Below the pieces are notes generated by a model. It was not told the DNA's origin, searched no databases, and saw only the letters and a program-made list of their open reading frames with translations. 21,586 nucleotides of DNA, taken from a virus. Position 1 is the first letter of the stretch. Each line of letters opens with the position of its first letter. This document shows positions 359 through 20,714 of this stretch, piece by piece. Position numbers and translations under genes: made by a program. The stretch covers positions 1 through 21,586 of the IMG/VR virus record IMGVR_UViG_3300018080_000654. One strand, written 5' to 3'.

Positions 359-3049
359 TTACGTTATGTCAACCCAAGAACCGGAGGGATCAAAGAAGAT
401 GGTGTCTGCGTCATGGACTTCACCGACGACTTGTAGAATATCTCCGGAGTCGGAAGGTTTATTGGCCTCTTGAACCATTCCACCCGCAGTTCCGTCATCA
501 ACGAATAGGACGTTGGCAATGCCATTTCCTACAGTCCAATTCCAATCGTCCTCGCGGATATACCCACGTCGCATACAGAGACCGGAAGCGTCTGCGTTTA
601 TAGCCGCTACGGCGATGATCCTGCCGAGCATAGTTGTGTTCGAGCCGGCGTCCGCTTTCCACCATTTGCCGTCTGACTTTTTGTACAAAACATCTCCGAA
701 TGAGACATTTTCTCCAACGGTGTAATTCGCGACGTCGCCACTGTATTCACCGTCGGCATCTGGAATGTCGTACTGGATACTCTTCTCGTTCAGGTCGAGA
801 ACTCCGCCGAGTTGGGGAGTGGTGTCATCTACGAGATCGCTTAACTTCCCTGCTATTGTCGACTGATTGCTCTCAACGTTTACACGGACCGCTGCGGTTG
901 TATCATCTACAACACCAAAACGTGTCAGGTGAGCAGTGAGTGTGTCTCCGTGCGTAGACAGCTGCGTCTGGATCGCTGAGGTAACACCGTCAAGGTATCC
1001 AAGCTCAGTAGGCGACACGTTGGTTTCATAAGATGCAACCGCTATGTTTCCTGAAGATGTCACATTGCCATCGCCGTCAACGGAAAAGTCGGTATTGCCC
1101 GAACCATCCTTTAAAGTGATTCCTTCCCGTGTAATGACAATACAGGAATCTGCACCAAAACCAACTTCTTTCTCACCCGTGACGATAAACGGCCCGCCAC
1201 GCAAAGCAAGGGTATCGCCATCGCCATATTCGCCAGCCTGAATCATCCCGGCACCACCAGTATTGGGATCAAGATATATATCGCCTGTGGTATTGCCGGT
1301 TATTATCTTTACGTAGGTTCCCTCATCAGACCCAGCGGCTAAATTAAGATACCCATCCATAAAATGCACATATGGCTTTGTAGCATTGCCCCGCCAAAAA
1401 TAGGTATTGGATGCAAGGTAATATTCACCTGCAACATAGATGTCATCATTTAATTCAAACCTATCATCCCCGTCATCCCATATAATGGAGTGTGCTGTAT
1501 TGTTTCCGTCATCACTAAAATAAATAGCAACATCATGATCCTCTGAACCTGATGATCCATAATCAAGATACAGGGCCGTGCCCTCGCCTACTATTCGTGC
1601 ATCACCCGCAACGGACAATAAAGATTCAACGGTCAGCGTATCAACGGAAGCGGAATCGGTCACTGTAATATTCGCCCACGTTGAATCAATATCTATCTCC
1701 GCCCACGTCCCATTGCCAGAAGCATCAGACGTTAAGTAGTAGCCGGCATTAGCTCCGGTAGTTAACTTGATAGACGCAAACGTACCGACTTCGGATCCTG
1801 TAACATTGCCTGTAACAACGACAGAATCTGCACTCTGCACATACCCGCTTGTAGCAAGCATCAAATTCCCGCCATTGTTACGAACATAACTTTCATTTCC
1901 ATGGGCGTCCATGACGGTTAGAATACCAGGTTTTAATATCGTAGCGGCGGTATCTGCGGCCTCTGCGTAAGTGCTAAAGTTATTATTTATTGTTGTATCA
2001 ACTACTATAATGTAAGGAGCGGATCCTGTACTCCCTTTAAACATGGCATACTTGCCTGTAACAGACGTTAAAGTCATATCGTCGCCGGGTATGTCTGCAC
2101 GTAGAGCCGCGGTGCTATCTTCTTCTGCAGCAATACGAGCGAGATGCGCCGATGCAGTGTCATCTAAAGCAGAGATGTCAGTTCGATGGGCTGTGACACT
2201 GTCGGCATTTGCGTCGATTTCGCCTCGGTGTACACTGGTAGAATCATCAAGGGCTTGTATACTAATCAAGTGTGTTGCAACTGTATCATCCAAAGCATCT
2301 ATGGCGGTTCGATGAACACCCACCGAATCGTCAAATGCTTGGATACTTGTGAGATGAACACCAAGTGAGTCTGCATTTTTATCTATCGCTGTACGGTGAA
2401 CTCCTACGGAATCCGACACAGCGTCTATCTCCGTACGGTGAGTATCCACGCTGTCCTCCACCGCCGAGATAGCGCCACGATGTGTACTTATGGAGTCTTC
2501 GTTCGCGACAATCCTGCCGAGATGGGCGGTAGTAGTGTCTTCGATGGCTGAGATGTCAGTACGCAATGCCCCTACGCTGTCCTCGTTGGCGGCAATCCTG
2601 ATCAAGTGCGCTGCCACGGTATCTTCACTCGCCGCTATACGAACTAGGTGCGCTGCGACAGAGTCGTCCAGTGCGGTAAGACGTACGAGATGTGCGGCTA
2701 CGGTATCATCGAGCGATTGTATACCTGTCAGGTGAACAGCAAGTGAATCTTTATTCTTATTGATATCTACCCTCAGAGCCGCGATAGAGTCCGATGACGC
2801 TACTCCGTCATTGGTTGTATACACACGAACGAAATGCGTACCGAATCCGACGTAGTATCCGCTGTCGGCTTCGGAGAAGTAGCATTTCCCGAAGTCTTTG
2901 CTAATCCCATTGGTGTCGGCTACCGACTTAAACGACTTGAACCACTGCGAGTTATACCACCCTGACTGTGGCCGCGTGTCTGTAGGAGTAGCCGTTGAAG
3001 CAAATAGAACTACAACGAGTAGGACAAATGTAAGTAACTGTTTCTTCAT
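359..3049 (-). CDS. Secreted fibre/adhesin-like protein with 17 x 14-residue coiled-coil stalk (896 aa)
   Basis: Probably a receptor-binding or fibre protein. Residues 1-20 form a Sec-type signal peptide (MKKQ plus LLTFVLLVVVLFA), which is odd for a phage virion part. Residues 87-324 are 17 consecutive 14-residue repeats, D[ST]V..H[LR]..I.A.[DE], exactly two heptads each, as expected for a trimeric coiled coil. A Gly/Asn/Asp-rich beta-type region follows. Around residues 682-700 is LGYLDGVTSAIQTQL, a motif I know from many phage tail fibres, then two further copies of the stalk repeat (702-729). The C-terminal ~125 residues (VGENVSFGDVLYKKSDGKWW ... REDDWNWTVGN ... VVGEV) resemble a tip module common in environmental phage fibres; this is from memory. 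The ribosome site AAAGGAG lies 8 bases before ATG 3049. The 193-aa signal-peptide gene is just upstream. An alternative is a lysogenic-conversion surface adhesin. Confidence 0.75.
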   Translation of the reverse strand: MKKQLLTFVLLVVVLFASTATPTDTRPQSGWYNSQWFKSFKSVADTNGISKDFGKCYFSEADSGYYVGFGTHFVRVYTTNDGVASSDSIAALRVDINKNKDSLAVHLTGIQSLDDTVAAHLVRLTALDDSVAAHLVRIAASEDTVAAHLIRIAANEDSVGALRTDISAIEDTTTAHLGRIVANEDSISTHRGAISAVEDSVDTHRTEIDAVSDSVGVHRTAIDKNADSLGVHLTSIQAFDDSVGVHRTAIDALDDTVATHLISIQALDDSTSVHRGEIDANADSVTAHRTDISALDDTASAHLARIAAEEDSTAALRADIPGDDMTLTSVTGKYAMFKGSTGSAPYIIVVDTTINNNFSTYAEAADTAATILKPGILTVMDAHGNESYVRNNGGNLMLATSGYVQSADSVVVTGNVTGSEVGTFASIKLTTGANAGYYLTSDASGNGTWAEIDIDSTWANITVTDSASVDTLTVESLLSVAGDARIVGEGTALYLDYGSSGSEDHDVAIYFSDDGNNTAHSIIWDDGDDRFELNDDIYVAGEYYLASNTYFWRGNATKPYVHFMDGYLNLAAGSDEGTYVKIITGNTTGDIYLDPNTGGAGMIQAGEYGDGDTLALRGGPFIVTGEKEVGFGADSCIVITREGITLKDGSGNTDFSVDGDGNVTSSGNIAVASYETNVSPTELGYLDGVTSAIQTQLSTHGDTLTAHLTRFGVVDDTTAAVRVNVESNQSTIAGKLSDLVDDTTPQLGGVLDLNEKSIQYDIPDADGEYSGDVANYTVGENVSFGDVLYKKSDGKWWKADAGSNTTMLGRIIAVAAINADASGLCMRRGYIREDDWNWTVGNGIANVLFVDDGTAGGMVQEANKPSDSGDILQVVGEVHDADTIFFDPSGSWVDIT
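863..946 (-). repeat. Two detached copies of the 14-residue stalk repeat
   Basis: Residues 702-729 of the fibre protein (DTLTAHLTRFGVVD and DTTAAVRVNVESNQ) match the stalk repeat consensus but sit almost 380 residues downstream of the main array, just before the C-terminal tip module. A second short coiled-coil neck that clamps the tip trimer is a reasonable inference. Confidence 0.75.
2078..2791 (-). repeat. 17 tandem 42-bp coding repeats (14-residue coiled-coil units)
   Basis: The array encodes residues 87-324 of the 896-aa fibre protein with no gaps: 17 x 42 = 714 bases. The units have diverged at DNA level, but at protein level they hold D1, S/T2, V/I3, H6, I10 and D/E14. His6 is present in 14 of 17 units; units 1, 6 and 17 have Leu there. 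Two more units lie downstream at 863-946. Confidence 0.9.
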
Positions 3050-11833: not shown

Positions 11834-11855
11834 GAAAAAATTAGCGATACCGCTA
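11834..11855 (-). terminator. Short intrinsic terminator after the portal gene
   Basis: On the minus strand TAGCG-GTAT-CGCTA forms a 5-bp stem directly at the portal stop codon (TAG is part of the stem), followed by AATTTTTTC. The T-run leads straight into the -35 box of the scaffold promoter. The stem is short, so termination may be partial. It would separate terminase/portal transcription from the strongly expressed capsid genes. Confidence 0.5.
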
Positions 11856-14186
11856 TGTGTTACGTTTTTTATCACCCTCCTTTTTTCCTTTCTCCGCATC
11901 GGCTTTTGCTTTATTAATGGCTATGAGAGTAGCTGCTTTTAAATCCGCACGGGTTTTCGCTTCGGTAGCACTGATACGCGATTCCGCTTCATGTATACGC
12001 TGAGATATAGCAGACTGAGCAGATGCTACGTCAACCCTGATTCCCGCCGTCGTGAGTTTATGTGTAAGTGATTTAATCGTAATCTGATGCTGGTCGACTG
12101 TAGACTGAAGTTGCTGAATCATCTGCTCCTGCTGTCGGATTGTATTGGCTTTCTCGATCATGGTAGCCCGGTCTCCGACGTCTGCAGAAGCAAGTAGGTC
12201 GGCATCATCTACGGCAACACCGAGCTCTCTCAACTCCTTCAGTTTCATATAGTTAAGTTCAGTACTACGAGGCAGGGTAGATCCAGGTATAATCGTAATG
12301 TCGGCGACGTCGTCGAATACGGTATGGCCGGGGGCATAAGCATTTCCATCCAGCTTGTACTGAGGCCTGTTGATTTCCAGCACTTTGTACTCGGCAGTAT
12401 TTGGATCAAGATATGACATAACTTTGTATTCGGTATACACCTGACGCGCCATCTCGACAAATACCGTACCGGCCATTTTGAGCGCCGGCTCCATTACATT
12501 CTTGATCCATGCCCGTATCCTTCTGGTATTCACCTCATCCATTTGGATCATACCTTTGAACGGCATACGGGAGAGGTCTCCGGCTACGGAGGGAAGAGTC
12601 GTCGCTCCCATACTGTCCTCGATTCCCATCTCACCTTCCTTTACAACATCGGCCAGCATGTTGGGAATCTGAGCAGGCAGGACCGGTACAGGCGCGTTCC
12701 AACCCCTGTTGTATTCGAGACGCGCGTTTGGAACGGTGCAGTTCTCATCCCACTTCTTCGGATCCGTGATCGATCCGGATTCGTGGAGCCACCGGATAGC
12801 CGCACCGAGGGTGACATGATATAGTAAAAGCTGATGACTCTTATTCACTTCTTCCTGCTTTCCGATAACTTTCGATACCAGCGATGTCGGGTAAGGTGTA
12901 CCCGTGTAATGATACGGAAGCGGTATGATCGGGTAGTGTGTAATTCCCAGGTCTACCCGATCCAGGAACGTGTCGAACCCAACTGAGCGAATTCGAATGA
13001 CGTGTGGTTTCCAGAATTTGACATCCCGGATAATTTGATACCCGAGATCGGTTGCTTGCTTTTTGAACTCGTCAGCCTCGGCTTCTTTCATCACAACGAC
13101 TTCGATAGCGTACAAATCTTCAGCAGCCCTCTTACGCGATTCCTCAAGATGTGCCCGCATCGTCTCGCCTTTTTCCTTCTCGAGTTTTTTGAGCTCGATC
13201 TGATGCCGTTCTTCAGAGATGGCCTCGTCTTCCTTCATCTCGTTAATACGGGCAACTCTCTCCGCAAACTCGAGGTTTACTTCCTGCTCGATCATCTTCA
13301 TGTATTCTTGGACGCCTTGCTCAGCTTGCTTTAAGTCGACGTCCTCGGGTACATTTTGAACAACCATGCGACGATAGGGTTTTGATTCTTTTGAGAATTG
13401 AGTGTGGAGTGTAATCCGGGCCGCTGGATCACCGGTCTTGTTAAGTATCTCGTGTATATCGGAAGCATAGATATTCTCCGATATCTCTTCGACCCGGTGT
13501 GTGCCAGAGTCCGACTGGAATGGATTCCCTCTCGCGCCGAGGATTTCCCGTTTGAACATAGGAAGCTGTTCGCATAACGCCTGTTTGGTTAAATGCTGCT
13601 CGACCTGGATGTAGTGAGCGTCTTGGAACATAATGTCTTTACTGTTTTCGGCCACAACTACGTCCCAGGTAGGCAGTGTGTTGAACATTACTTCGCCACT
13701 TCCATCGTCCGCGTTCTGATCAGGATAGACATACAGATACCCAAGCGACTTCGACAGCGAATTCTCTATGTACAATCCCGCCAAAGACTGGAAGTTTGAC
13801 TTCTCGAGAGAACGCATCAGCATTTTTGTTGCGAGGTCTGCTTCGACTACCCGAGTCCCGGAGATCGATGTAGCGCGGAATGCCGGCGAGTTGGCTGTAA
13901 TGAGATACTTCAATCTCTCGAGAGAAGGCCCAATCTTGTCATGGATAAACGTAGGGATCCCCGCGGACTCAAGGTCGTTCAGCTCACGCTGAGACAGTTG
14001 ATCTCCCATGCTGAAATTGTAGCTGTTCTTGGAGCGCTTGAGCCATAGTGCACGAGCGCCGCTGTTCGCATTTTCTCCAATGTAGTGGAGGACTTTGGCC
14101 AACTCCTTCTCGCTCATACCGCCGAAGTCGACGCGCCCCATGGTTTGTGCGAGCTTTTTGTAATCCCGCTTCTCGGCTCTTTTCAT
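11853..14186 (-). CDS. Portal protein, P22-like family (777 aa)
   Basis: Dodecameric ring at the head vertex through which DNA is packed and released. The N-terminal third (NFSMGDQLSQRELNDLESAG, then IPTFIHDKIGPSLERLKYLI, then SPAFRAT) matches the pattern of P22-type portal proteins, which read '...G.QWs..e...l...g.p....N.i.p......G....'. The middle holds a long charged coiled coil (MKMIEQEVNLEFAERVARIN and onward). The C-terminal ~110 residues are helical and Lys/Ala-rich (barrel-like). I start it at ATG 14186, which has GAGGAGG 6-8 bases upstream and overlaps the TerL stop as ATGA, rather than at the in-frame TTG 30 bases earlier. At 777 aa it is close to the large P22-like portals. The stop codon forms part of the terminator at 11834-11855. 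Confidence 0.85.
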   Translation of the reverse strand: MKRAEKRDYKKLAQTMGRVDFGGMSEKELAKVLHYIGENANSGARALWLKRSKNSYNFSMGDQLSQRELNDLESAGIPTFIHDKIGPSLERLKYLITANSPAFRATSISGTRVVEADLATKMLMRSLEKSNFQSLAGLYIENSLSKSLGYLYVYPDQNADDGSGEVMFNTLPTWDVVVAENSKDIMFQDAHYIQVEQHLTKQALCEQLPMFKREILGARGNPFQSDSGTHRVEEISENIYASDIHEILNKTGDPAARITLHTQFSKESKPYRRMVVQNVPEDVDLKQAEQGVQEYMKMIEQEVNLEFAERVARINEMKEDEAISEERHQIELKKLEKEKGETMRAHLEESRKRAAEDLYAIEVVVMKEAEADEFKKQATDLGYQIIRDVKFWKPHVIRIRSVGFDTFLDRVDLGITHYPIIPLPYHYTGTPYPTSLVSKVIGKQEEVNKSHQLLLYHVTLGAAIRWLHESGSITDPKKWDENCTVPNARLEYNRGWNAPVPVLPAQIPNMLADVVKEGEMGIEDSMGATTLPSVAGDLSRMPFKGMIQMDEVNTRRIRAWIKNVMEPALKMAGTVFVEMARQVYTEYKVMSYLDPNTAEYKVLEINRPQYKLDGNAYAPGHTVFDDVADITIIPGSTLPRSTELNYMKLKELRELGVAVDDADLLASADVGDRATMIEKANTIRQQEQMIQQLQSTVDQHQITIKSLTHKLTTAGIRVDVASAQSAISQRIHEAESRISATEAKTRADLKAATLIAINKAKADAEKGKKEGDKKRNT

Positions 14187-15784
14187 GATGACATCCTCCT
14201 CTGTGATCCCTTCCAAGATGAACGAATAGGCCCGTCAGCCGAAAAACTCTGAAGCCCCGATTCGTGGACGTTGGTTACGTCAGAACTGTAATTTGCAGGC
14301 ATAGTCATATACACAGTTGCGAAAAACAAGGACTCAATTAAATCATCGTGTTTCATAGAAGGCCCAAAGCCTATGATCTGGTTAATCATCTCATCCTGCC
14401 CATGCCTGACTTTTATCCTGCTGGTGGATAGGTACGGGTTGAGTCCTGTCTTTATTTTATTTAACTTCTCTCGTCCTGCAGGAGGTTCCGGAATAATATG
14501 CACATCCTTTCGCTCAGTCTTCTCTTTCCATGCCTCAAAGTCGTTCATGAGGCCGCGGGTAACGGTGACATCTTCGACCACAGCATACTGAACCGCATAA
14601 GTATCATATATATCGACCAAGATCTCGACTGTGCCTTTATCACCTATAAGTTCTCCGGATGAGCTGTACAGGCCGATGGTACGCATATTCCGCTTTAAGA
14701 AATATTCCATAACGTGGATTTCGAGGTTGAGAAGGTAGGCTATTACAGTTATAGCCGTGTAATCGGATTCATGTGTATCGATATCTGTAGCCGGATCACA
14801 ACCTATGTAGTAATTAGCGGGGATATATTCACCATCGCCTGTGATTACAAACGTGCGTCTGGTGTGTGGATGCATGAAGAAGCGTGAGTTATGATAGCCT
14901 ATGTGCTGGCGGGTCCATATCCTCGACTGCTCTGAACGTACCTGGAGTTCATATTCCTGGTAATACCCTTGGGTAGAACCGAACGTACTGAGATACCAAT
15001 TCTTTTTCTCGATGAGTTTCTGCTTGGAGAACCGCGGGTACCAAAGGACGCCGCCCTTCATCTTCGGTTGAGTAGCGGGGAAGAAGTGTACTTTCCAAAG
15101 AGCCGGTACGTTGTTCCCCTGTTCGTCATATATGTCAACGGTGCGGCTTCGTATAATATCTGCACATAAGGAATCGTCGTGAACGGGTGTGGCGTTTATG
15201 ATCATACGGCCTATGTCCGGATCCAAGGCAGGGAATACCGCATCAGCGACACGGCGCTTTATAGCGGCTCTGGCTTCAGGCGTCTTCGTGTTGTCTTCGT
15301 TCTCGATGTCATCGAGGATGATTACGTGGAAACGCTCCGCTCCTCCATAAATATTGGCTTTTGTCTCTCCTCGAATCATCTTCAGGTTTGACCTAGAAAT
15401 GAGGGTCTGGCCATGCCGGAATTCTTTGTAGTGCTCATTCCATTTAAAGTTGACTTCTTTCCCGGAGAGGTTACCGAAGTAATACCGGAATACTTTACTA
15501 TAGACTACCTGCTTGTCGATGTAGTCCATGTTATTAAAGGCTTTGGTGATATTGTCGGCAATCCATACAAAGAATGGAGGCGGACCTACAGGACCGCCAT
15601 GGTAACGCTTCCTTGAGTAGAACGAGAAGTTGTGAAGGATGAGAGCTTTCGTGAGGGTAGTTTTGCCATGGCCACGAGCTACGATGTTGGCCACGTACTT
15701 AATGGTACGATCGAGGAGACTGTCCGCCATGATATAATGGCAGGGTGGAGACGGACTTTTCCTAAAGTCCCCTGGTAAAAACAA
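14183..15784 (-). CDS. terL: Terminase large subunit (at least 533 aa; true start probably upstream)
   Basis: Packaging motor ATPase and nuclease. Counting from TTG 15784, the Walker A-type loop is VARGHGKTT (35-43) and the Walker B VIILDDIENED (154-164); the RNase H-like nuclease follows with YYIGCDPATD (Asp330), AVVEDV (Glu404/Asp405) and KHDDLIESL (Asp480/481). The C-terminal ~30 residues are Ser/Arg-rich. The coding frame clearly extends beyond TTG 15784: upstream, in frame, it reads LSAREEAFHKAEGDLIYYGK before LFLPGDF, and the G-x-L-I-x-[FY]-G-[RK]-x-[FL]-L-P pattern is the conserved N-terminus of such terminases. The frame stays open to a TGA at 15890-15892 but holds no ATG, GTG or TTG there. 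Candidates are CTG 15883, ATT 15880 or a +1 shift from the 128-aa gene. The stop overlaps the portal start (ATGA). Confidence 0.9.
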   Translation of the reverse strand: MFLPGDFRKSPSPPCHYIMADSLLDRTIKYVANIVARGHGKTTLTKALILHNFSFYSRKRYHGGPVGPPPFFVWIADNITKAFNNMDYIDKQVVYSKVFRYYFGNLSGKEVNFKWNEHYKEFRHGQTLISRSNLKMIRGETKANIYGGAERFHVIILDDIENEDNTKTPEARAAIKRRVADAVFPALDPDIGRMIINATPVHDDSLCADIIRSRTVDIYDEQGNNVPALWKVHFFPATQPKMKGGVLWYPRFSKQKLIEKKNWYLSTFGSTQGYYQEYELQVRSEQSRIWTRQHIGYHNSRFFMHPHTRRTFVITGDGEYIPANYYIGCDPATDIDTHESDYTAITVIAYLLNLEIHVMEYFLKRNMRTIGLYSSSGELIGDKGTVEILVDIYDTYAVQYAVVEDVTVTRGLMNDFEAWKEKTERKDVHIIPEPPAGREKLNKIKTGLNPYLSTSRIKVRHGQDEMINQIIGFGPSMKHDDLIESLFFATVYMTMPANYSSDVTNVHESGLQSFSADGPIRSSWKGSQRRMSS

Positions 15785-19553: not shown

Positions 19554-19709
19554 GGAAAAAGTGGCAGACCCCAAGATCTCAAGGCTAAAATTTTTGGTAG
19601 GAAAAATTTTTGGAAATATCTGTTCTCTGCACCCTCCACTTGTTAATGGGGCGCCCATCTACTGGGGTTTTTTCTGTGGCATTTCTTTGGTTTTCCAGGA
19701 TTAATCTAC

Positions 19710-19760: not shown

Positions 19761-19795
19761 TGGTCTGAAATCGACCAGTGGCCGGAAATCGACCA
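19761..19795. promoter_or_regulatory. Distal pair of 17-bp inverted-repeat sites
   Basis: Two sites with centres 18 bp apart: TGGTCTGAAATCGACCA (19761-19777) and TGGCCGGAAATCGACCA (19779-19795). Each is a dyad with 6-base arms around GAAAT. They lie about 200-235 bp upstream of the -24 element of the sigma-54-type promoter, within the normal range of enhancer sites. Confidence 0.75.
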
Positions 19796-19800
19796 AACGG

Positions 19801-19980
19801 ATTAAGCCTCTGTTTCCATTGGACTTAGCTCATAGGCAGTAGCGCCACATACGGTGTTAAGTTATTGTTTCCAATGGATTTAACCCAAGTGGCCGGAAAT
19901 CGACCACCATGGCCGGAAATCGGCCACTTGCTCTATTTTATAGAAAAACCGGTAAGTTATTGTTTTTATTAGAGTTGACT
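19801..19980. repeat. Three imperfect 30-bp direct repeats
   Basis: Copies begin at 19801, 19856 and 19951. The consensus is about GTTAAGTTATTGTTTCCAAT plus GGATTTAACT; copies 1 and 2 share TGTTTCCA.TGGA.TTA, and copies 2 and 3 share TAAGTTATTGTTT. The part TAA-NNNN-TTGTTT is one base from the reverse complement of the IHF consensus. Copy 3 lies between the enhancer-like sites and the sigma-54 promoter. Confidence 0.6.
19890..19926. promoter_or_regulatory. Proximal pair of 17-bp inverted-repeat sites
   Basis: TGGCCGGAAATCGACCA (19890-19906) and TGGCCGGAAATCGGCCA (19910-19926), centres 20 bp apart, close to two helical turns. The last copy is a perfect dyad (TGGCCG/CGGCCA). The pair lies about 70-105 bp upstream of the -24 element, which suits a dimeric activator binding side by side. 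A half-site, GGCCGAAATC, occurs at 19984-19993. Confidence 0.75.
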
Positions 19981-19994
19981 GACGGCCGAAATCT

Positions 19995-20011
19995 TTGGCA
20001 CAGGGTTTGCA
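19995..20011 (+). promoter_or_regulatory. Sigma-54 (RpoN)-type promoter for the rightward arm
   Basis: TTGGCAC (19995-20001), five bases, then TTGCA (20007-20011). The invariant GG (19997-19998) and GC (20009-20010) are at the exact -24/-12 spacing, and 11 of 11 defined bases of TGGCAC-N5-TTGCA match. Transcription would begin near 20022, giving a leader of about 38 bases to the 59-aa gene. No good sigma-70 promoter was found in this direction. Confidence 0.7.
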
Positions 20012-20059
20012 GGCATTTTGACCAGCATCCGGCCGACGTTTTTTAAAAAGGAGTTAACA

Positions 20060-20239
20060 ATGAATAGTATTCAAAGGTTAAAAGATCAGTACTACATTGA
20101 AACCGGTATAACTTTCGATTTAGTAGATCATTACTTATGGACAAAACGCGGGACAATAAGAAAGCGATTAGTTGGTATGACCTCAACCCAATTCCAGAAG
20201 TGGGTTTTCAGGGATTTAGAAAAAATGCTTTGTGCATAA
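20060..20239 (+). CDS. Small hypothetical protein, first gene of rightward arm (59 aa)
   Basis: I start at ATG 20060 because AAAAAGGAG lies 6-8 bases upstream; a longer form from 20018 lacks a ribosome site and would begin before the predicted transcript start. The protein is basic and helical (MNSIQRLKDQYYIETGITFD; LWTKRGTIRKRLVGM; FQKWVFRDLEKML), which is compatible with DNA binding, but no clear HTH could be confirmed. Base composition is more AT-rich than in the leftward arm. As the first gene under the sigma-54-type promoter it is a candidate regulator of the divergent region (inference). Confidence 0.6.
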   Translation: MNSIQRLKDQYYIETGITFDLVDHYLWTKRGTIRKRLVGMTSTQFQKWVFRDLEKMLCA

Positions 20240-20300: not shown

Positions 20301-20714
20301 ATGAGTAAATCAAAGTACGAACCCAAGGCAGACCGTATACTCTATGTCGGGCAGAAAATCGTTATTAGTAAGACGGATACGTCCCAAATCGTTGTATACC
20401 CCCAATGGAGACAGTATCTCGACGGTGCTCCCCGTGCAGTATTGGAGACTCACGTATTACGGCCTGGAGCTAAGCCCTGGAGCAAAAAGACGCCTATGAC
20501 CGCGGAGAACATTCCGGTCATTATTAAAGCTTTGACGGCTCTTAATGCCAAAGCCGTCAAAGAAGAAGCTTTTGGGCGTGCATTTGAACGGGGTTCTCAG
20601 CCTAAGAAGTCCAACGGTAACAATATCGAATATCAGCCACCCAAAGTTGGTATGACCGCGGCAGGGACGGAATACGATGAGGAATCCGTCGAAGAAAGCG
20701 ATACAGGCAAGTAA
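20301..20714 (+). CDS. Hypothetical protein with acidic tail (137 aa)
   Basis: ATG 20301 is chosen for its ribosome site (GGCAGGGAGG, about 7 bases away); a 23-residue longer form overlaps the previous gene and lacks one. Layout: a basic start (MSKSKYEPKADRILYVGQKI), a beta-type part with PQWRQYLDGAPRAVLETHVL, a helix (AENIPVIIKALTALNAKAVK), then a disordered end with the acidic DEESVEESDTGK. Acidic C-terminal tails are common in phage single-strand-DNA-binding or DNA-mimic proteins, but the body shows no OB-fold pattern I can defend. A hairpin terminator follows 23 bases after the stop. The gene contains a perfect 10-bp inverted repeat (20531-20561). Confidence 0.6.
   Translation: MSKSKYEPKADRILYVGQKIVISKTDTSQIVVYPQWRQYLDGAPRAVLETHVLRPGAKPWSKKTPMTAENIPVIIKALTALNAKAVKEEAFGRAFERGSQPKKSNGNNIEYQPPKVGMTAAGTEYDEESVEESDTGK
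20531..20561 (+). repeat. 10-bp inverted repeat inside the 137-aa gene
   Basis: TTTGACGGCT (20531-20540) and AGCCGTCAAA (20552-20561) form a perfect 10-bp stem with an 11-base loop. The same TTTGACGGCT recurs at 21137-21146 in the downstream CxxC gene. Both lie in coding sequence. Regulatory use is only a possibility. Confidence 0.5.

What the first reader, a model, noticed from the sequence alone, without database searches (positions are those of the whole stretch)
19761..20059. Sigma-54-type phage promoter with four upstream enhancer-like sites
A rightward -24/-12 element, TGGCAC-AGGGT-TTGCA (19996-20011), matches the RpoN consensus at every defined base with exact spacing. Upstream, at about 70-105 and 200-235 bp, are two pairs of a 17-bp dyad (TGGCCG-GAAAT-CGRCCA). 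Sigma-54 promoters need an AAA+ enhancer-binding protein bound to paired dyads at just such distances. Together these suggest a phage gene arm controlled by host RpoN and a specific activator, so phage gene expression would be tied to host nitrogen, stress or surface signals. Such wiring is rare among described tailed phages as far as I know. The parts are seen in the sequence; the circuit is inferred.
Basis: partly seen in the sequence, partly recalled or inferred. Interest (0 to 1): 0.85.

Follow-up and report, generated by a model that had tools for sequence, protein, structure and literature searches.

The report
Phage early arm driven by sigma-54
An uncultured group of bacterial viruses starts its DNA-replication genes from a switch built like the bacterial nitrogen-type (sigma-54) promoters, complete with paired activator sites and a DNA-bending site, which suggests that infection waits on a regulator supplied by the host.

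Summary
TGGCACAGGGTTTGCA (19996-20011) is the only RpoN consensus match in the window (about 0.01 expected), and the four 17-bp dyads are its four best dyad hits. The same promoter sits at the same divergence point in every recovered close relative whose DNA spans it: L034/G010, L121/G020 with its near copy L119, and L035/G011 (terminase 46-50% identical). Differences in the element fall on undefined or degenerate bases. A dyad matrix built only from the window recovers paired sites at matching distances in these relatives. In L035 one dyad pair lies midway between two divergent -24/-12 promoters. The downstream arm carries replication genes in the complete relative G010. No phage activator (Sigma54_activat, HTH_8, GAFTGA motif) was found, so the activator is probably the host's. 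Best explanation: a host-RpoN, enhancer-dependent, IHF-assisted master promoter for the early arm. Phage use of RpoN is known from Pseudomonas phage YuA (late genes), so this is a new variant of a known kind. Host, activator and actual transcription remain untested.

The parts
19996..20011 (+). -24/-12 (RpoN-type) promoter element TGGCACAGGGTTTGCA; inferred start about 20022-20023
   Evidence: conserved in L034, L121, L119, L035
19910..19926 (.). proximal enhancer dyad, TGGCCGGAAATCGGCCA, centre -105
   Evidence: counterparts at -114 (G010, L121) and -77 (G011)
19890..19906 (.). proximal enhancer dyad, TGGCCGGAAATCGACCA, centre -125
   Evidence: counterparts at -134, -133 and -96
19779..19795 (.). 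distal enhancer dyad, TGGCCGGAAATCGACCA, centre -236
   Evidence: counterpart at -224 in L121
19761..19777 (.). distal enhancer dyad (degenerate), TGGTCTGAAATCGACCA, centre -254
   Evidence: counterparts TGGTCTGGAATCGACCA at -243 in L121 and CGGTAAATTTCCGGCCA at -244 in G010
19953..19979 (+). IHF-like element between proximal dyads and promoter; core TAAGTTATTGTTT 19953-19965 (reverse complement AAACAATAACTTA, one change from WATCAANNNNTTR)
   Evidence: core TAANNNNTTGWTT begins at -65 to -70 in all relatives and occurs only twice per genome or locus
19858..19884 (+). second copy of the IHF-like repeat, just upstream of the proximal dyad pair
19803..19829 (+). third, diverged copy of the same repeat next to the distal dyad pair; similar sequence adjoins the distal pair in L034 and L121
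20048..20053 (+). AAGGAG, likely ribosome-binding site of the first rightward ORF
   Evidence: sequence
20060..20239 (+). first ORF of the rightward arm (59 aa, no family match)
20301..20714 (+). second ORF of the rightward arm (137 aa); 30% alignment identity to L034:6435-6779(-), homology uncertain
14183..15784 (-). terminase large subunit of the diverging structural arm (anchor for finding relatives)

Best explanation
The element at 19761-20059 is the main promoter of the rightward arm of an uncultured podovirus-like phage. In relatives that arm carries the replication genes. Host RNA polymerase with sigma-54 (RpoN) would bind the -24/-12 element as a closed complex. A host-encoded AAA+ enhancer-binding protein would bind the paired 17-bp dyads at about -105/-125 and -236/-254. 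IHF, or a similar bending protein, bound at about -64 would loop the DNA so that the activator can open the complex. Transcription would begin near 20022 and enter the arm at the ATG at 20060. Shown here: the sequence elements, their statistics, and their conservation in order and distance. Inferred: binding by RpoN, IHF and an activator, the host origin of the activator, and early timing.
For: (1) Only exact RpoN site in the window, 0.010 expected. (2) A TGGCAYN5TTGCW site at the same divergence point in L034/G010, L121/G020, L119 and twice, divergently, in L035/G011. It is absent from the other 11 more distant records of that scan, and expectation is only 0.08-0.10 per 56-kb genome. In 1.64 Mb of relatives, outside this clade it occurs only in L058 and L060, which share one site without dyads. 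(3) GG and GC are invariant; differences among the sites fall on the N5 spacer, the C/T base of the -24 box or the final A/T. (4) A dyad matrix built only from the window finds ranks 1, 2 and 4 of the whole G010 genome at -114, -134 and -244; ranks 1, 2, 7 and 8 of L121 at -243, -114, -133 and -224; ranks 2 and 10 of G011. (5) TAANNNNTTGWTT starts at -70, -69, -69, -69 and -65 in five loci but occurs only twice per genome or locus. (6) Across IMG/VR, 28 stretches match TTGTTTTT-N26-30-TGGCAYN5TTGCW; only the three from this clade also have strong dyads (14-20 bits; the next best is 10). (7) In L035 one dyad pair lies 76 and 95 bp from both divergent promoters, resembling the RpoN- and IHF-dependent divergent orp operons of Desulfovibrio vulgaris (PMC3897727). 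(8) Replication genes lie in the arm downstream in relatives.
Against: No transcript data. Host unknown, so the presence of rpoN, IHF and a matching activator cannot be checked. The dyad pair was not found as a recurring host motif: 3 of 392 genomes in one phylum sample, 0 of 398 in another, and the one hit resembling the phage sites (L028) has no sigma-54 site in a plausible place. The IHF call rests on consensus resemblance; strict IHF consensus is met only in L035. Relatives are few: four loci, two of them near-identical.
Confidence: 0.82

Rival explanations
1. The dyads are operators of a phage-encoded DNA-binding protein (repressor or activator) acting on an ordinary sigma-70 promoter, and the -24/-12 match is incidental.
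For: Paired dyads also suit repressors. Sigma-70-like hexamers exist in the region: 19553 leftward in the window, and others in L034, L121 and L035. A weak dyad-like site overlaps the inferred start at 20019.
Against: The -24/-12 element is conserved at a near-fixed distance from dyads and bending site in all members, and GG/GC never change. No conserved sigma-70 promoter toward the arm was seen at a common position. No DNA-binding regulator showed among the 25 best Pfam families of the early-arm proteins.
Confidence: 0.08
2. The dyads are hairpin promoters for a virion RNA polymerase, as in phage N4, to which the terminase is distantly related.
For: The terminase matches phrog_38 and N4-like phages at about 26-28% identity. 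The dyads could form hairpins (6-bp stem, 5-base loop).
Against: No ORF in the complete relative G010 approaches the size of the N4 virion polymerase; the largest is 1332 aa. No RNA_pol match, though that search had no positive control. The dyads are imperfect in relatives.
Confidence: 0.03
3. The repeats are iterons or an origin of replication, with the promoter a minor feature.
For: Two families of short repeats in a non-coding stretch at the head of the arm that carries replication genes.
Against: Order and distances are kept relative to the -24/-12 element in several genomes. In L035 the dyads are centred between two divergent -24/-12 promoters.
Confidence: 0.04
4. The promoter is sigma-54-dependent, but the activator is a phage protein too diverged for the profiles used.
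For: Many early-arm proteins have no family match.
Against: No Sigma54_activat match at E<=1, no HTH_8, and no GAFTGA-like motif in long ORFs, in one genome with matching ends (G010) and another of similar size (G011).
Confidence: 0.08

Closest known systems
Pseudomonas phage YuA (Yuavirus), sigma-54-dependent promoters
   Same: A tailed phage using host RpoN. PMC5053324 states that YuA development is strictly dependent on host sigma-54. The YuA record annotates three high-activity -24/-12 promoters.
   Different: YuA's three sites lie in the structural (late) region of a siphovirus. Its annotated intervals give no forward site above 6 bits on my matrix, and the clade's dyads do not recur at them. 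Here one consensus site with paired enhancer dyads and an IHF-like site heads the replication arm.
Divergent orp operons of Desulfovibrio vulgaris (sigma-54, activator DVU2106, IHF)
   Same: Two divergent sigma-54 promoters with activator palindromes and IHF sites between palindrome and promoter (PMC3897727); L035 has a similar layout.
   Different: Host chromosomal genes with a known cognate activator; a phage arm with unknown activator here.
N4-like phages (Schitoviridae)
   Same: Distant terminase similarity; P22-type portal; structural and replication genes in opposing arms.
   Different: No N4-type giant virion RNA polymerase seen; the early arm appears to use host polymerase.

Membership tests
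Sigma-54 (RpoN)-dependent promoter | -24 GG and -12 GC with fixed spacing (TGGCAC-N5-TTGCA/T) | tested here: met
   conserved in relatives
Sigma-54 (RpoN)-dependent promoter | transcription lost without rpoN | not testable with these tools
   no host in hand
Sigma-54 (RpoN)-dependent promoter | upstream activator sites, usually paired dyads about 80-250 bp upstream | tested here: met
Sigma-54 (RpoN)-dependent promoter | cognate AAA+ activator present in the cell (phage- or host-encoded) | tested here: inconclusive
   none in the phage genomes; expected in the host, which is unknown
IHF-assisted sigma-54 promoter | IHF site between activator sites and promoter | tested here: inconclusive
   TAANNNNTTGWTT at -65 to -70 in all members; full WATCAANNNNTTR consensus only in L035 (AATCAACACGTTA); binding not tested
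RpoN-using phages (YuA type) | -24/-12 promoters in the phage genome | tested here: met
RpoN-using phages (YuA type) | relatedness to YuA or the same promoter and enhancer sequences | tested here: not met
   capsid protein and regulatory region have no match in the phage collection; clade dyads absent at YuA promoters
N4-like vRNAP promoters | virion RNA polymerase gene | tested here: inconclusive
   no ORF of that size in G010; PF00940 search without positive control

The most novel reading that the evidence does not exclude
A lineage of lytic phages has placed the start of its whole early programme, and in one member two diverging units, under a single host enhancer-binding protein. Replication then proceeds only when a particular host signalling pathway is on, and the infecting genome can otherwise wait as a silent passenger.
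Probability: 0.4. Interest if true: 0.8.

Novelty: new variant of a known kind. Interest (0 to 1): 0.64.

Why it matters
Sigma-54 promoters are tightly off without an activator that senses a specific host state, so a phage that starts its replication genes this way has a built-in link between host physiology and infection. The only precedent found in the literature searched (YuA) is annotated with RpoN promoters in its late region. The conserved dyads give a direct handle for finding the host activator, and hence the host and the signal, of an uncultured phage group.

Tried and rejected
Host identification failed. No tRNAs in the relatives. The capsid protein has no match among described phages. 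The dyad-pair pattern in bacterial genomes gave nine stretches, of which only L028 (a Planctomycetaceae MAG) resembles the phage sites; it has no usable -24/-12 downstream and is isolated in its phylum. The pattern was absent from 398 genomes of a second phylum. Exact paired-dyad scan of IMG/VR: nothing, because the pattern was too strict. Relatives of the 137-aa ORF by its peptides: none. Rfam: no match. Structure of the early-arm ORF family: confidence too low to use (pLDDT 42). Consensus -24/-12 sites in L058 and L060 were set aside because they lack dyads and the bending site. Several high matrix scores in other distant relatives were not pursued; the one that was read (shared by L018 and L019) lies inside an ORF.

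Full report
WHAT IS THERE. The window is a 21,586-base virus fragment. A leftward arm encodes a terminase large subunit (14183-15784), a P22-type portal (11853-14216) and other structural genes. After a non-coding stretch, a rightward arm starts at the ATG at 20060. In that stretch lie four 17-bp dyads, three copies of a second repeat and one -24/-12 element. The exact element is expected 0.010 times in the window. On an approximate RpoN matrix it scores 19.7 bits; the next site scores 11.3, and 1 of 60 shuffles does as well. The four dyads are the top four hits of their own matrix and the only matches at up to three mismatches, 0.07 expected.

RELATIVES. Scans of viral contigs with the terminase found many distant relatives at 35-41% identity. 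They also found a small clade at 46-50%: L034/G010 (56,737 bases, with matching 123-base ends, so probably complete), L035/G011 (56,073), L121/G020 (56,193), its near copy L119, and L120, a fragment that begins inside the terminase gene. L035 comes from the Ace Lake (Antarctica) co-assembly.

CONSERVATION OF THE PROMOTER. At the divergence point each spanning relative has a -24/-12 element: L034 TGGCACGGCGTTTGCT, L121 and L119 TGGCACGGGCTTTGCT, L035 TGGCATGCTTGTTGCT toward the replication arm plus TGGCATAAGGATTGCA in the other direction. Across 13 whole records the pattern TGGCAYN5TTGCW gave three matches, all in this region of G010 and G011. Against an expectation of 0.08-0.10 per genome, two in one short gap of G011 is far from chance. 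Compared with one another, the sites keep GG and GC; they differ in the N5 spacer, at the C/T base and at the final A/T. In 1.64 Mb of relatives, outside this clade the pattern occurs only in L058 and L060, without dyads or bending site.

CONSERVATION OF THE DYADS. A matrix built from the window's four dyads alone was scanned over the relatives. In G010 the genome-wide ranks 1, 2 and 4 fall here, at -114, -134 and -244. In L121 ranks 1, 2, 7 and 8 fall at -243, -114, -133 and -224. In G011 ranks 2 and 10 fall side by side. The window's own centres are -105, -125, -236 and -254. In L035 one pair lies at -76 and -95 from both of two divergent promoters.

The promoter-proximal copy of the second repeat (19953-19979) contains TAAGTTATTGTTT. 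Read on the other strand, AAACAATAACTTA is one change from the IHF consensus WATCAANNNNTTR; L035 has AATCAACACGTTA, a full match. The core TAANNNNTTGWTT occurs only twice per genome or locus, yet one copy starts at -70, -69, -69, -69 and -65 in the window, L034, L121, L119 and L035. IHF sites between activator sites and a sigma-54 promoter are the classical layout; the orp operons of Desulfovibrio vulgaris show it for two divergent promoters (PMC3897727).

SPECIFICITY CONTROL. Of 28 IMG/VR stretches that match TTGTTTTT-N26-30-TGGCAYN5TTGCW, only the three from this clade (all with the 28-base gap) have strong dyads, scoring 14-20 bits; the best elsewhere is 10. The window's own record may be left out of such scans.

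WHAT IT DRIVES. In G010 the arm downstream runs about 26 kb (28708 to 2452) and includes a uracil-DNA-glycosylase/DNA polymerase A fusion; together the early-arm proteins of G010 and G011 include primase, DnaB helicase and nucleases. Early timing is inferred from this content.

WHO ACTIVATES IT. No Sigma54_activat domain at E<=1 in G010, G011 and six other records, none in nine more, no HTH_8 in G010, G011, G020 and G021, and no GAFTGA-like motif in long ORFs of G010 and G011. The activator is therefore most likely the host's. Neither host nor activator could be named.

HOW IT MOST LIKELY WORKS. Sigma-54 holoenzyme waits at the promoter; a host enhancer-binding protein on the dyads, brought close by a bend at about -64, opens it when its signal is present. 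The elements and their conservation are shown; the binding, the signal and the timing are inferred.

COMPARISON. [quoted passage not shown] The YuA record annotates three -24/-12 promoters in its structural region. By my matrix those intervals hold no strong forward site, and the clade's dyads are not at them. So the use of RpoN is not new. Placing one consensus, enhancer-paired, IHF-like promoter at the head of the replication arm, conserved across a clade, is a new variant. Ten literature searches of the open-access library found no described phage with this layout; that library lacks most subscription papers.

Noticed in passing
window 19650-19672; L034 7360-7420; L121 7430-7480: A terminator-like hairpin with a T run pointing toward the replication arm lies upstream of the enhancer region; L034 and L121 share a CCCGCCCCCGTAAAATYGGG motif followed by T-rich sequence. 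It may insulate the arm or end a small RNA.
   Followed up: partly
window 19553-19525 (-): TTGACA-17-TACATT, a 10 of 12 sigma-70-type promoter pointing to the leftward structural arm, so the two arms may use different sigma factors.
   Followed up: no
window 20019-20035: A weak dyad-like site (TGACCAGCATCCGGCCG) overlaps the inferred start; it could give feedback control by the same activator.
   Followed up: no
L113:5014-7533 (G010): DNA polymerase A with an N-terminal uracil-DNA-glycosylase domain in one 839-aa protein.
   Followed up: no
L028:3426-3460: A Planctomycetaceae MAG has TGGTCGTTAAGCGACCAGTGGCCGAAAATCGGCCA about 90 bases upstream of a 390-aa ORF, very like the window's distal pair; no -24/-12 site follows it.
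   Followed up: partly
L034:5001-5681, L035:310-648, G011:5626-6321: Repetitive early-arm proteins (pentapeptide-type and MLTYG-type repeats) in the relatives.
   Followed up: no
window 359-3049: An 896-aa ORF with many repeats of the DDSVAAHLVRI type near its N terminus, probably a tail-fibre protein with a long coiled region.
   Followed up: no
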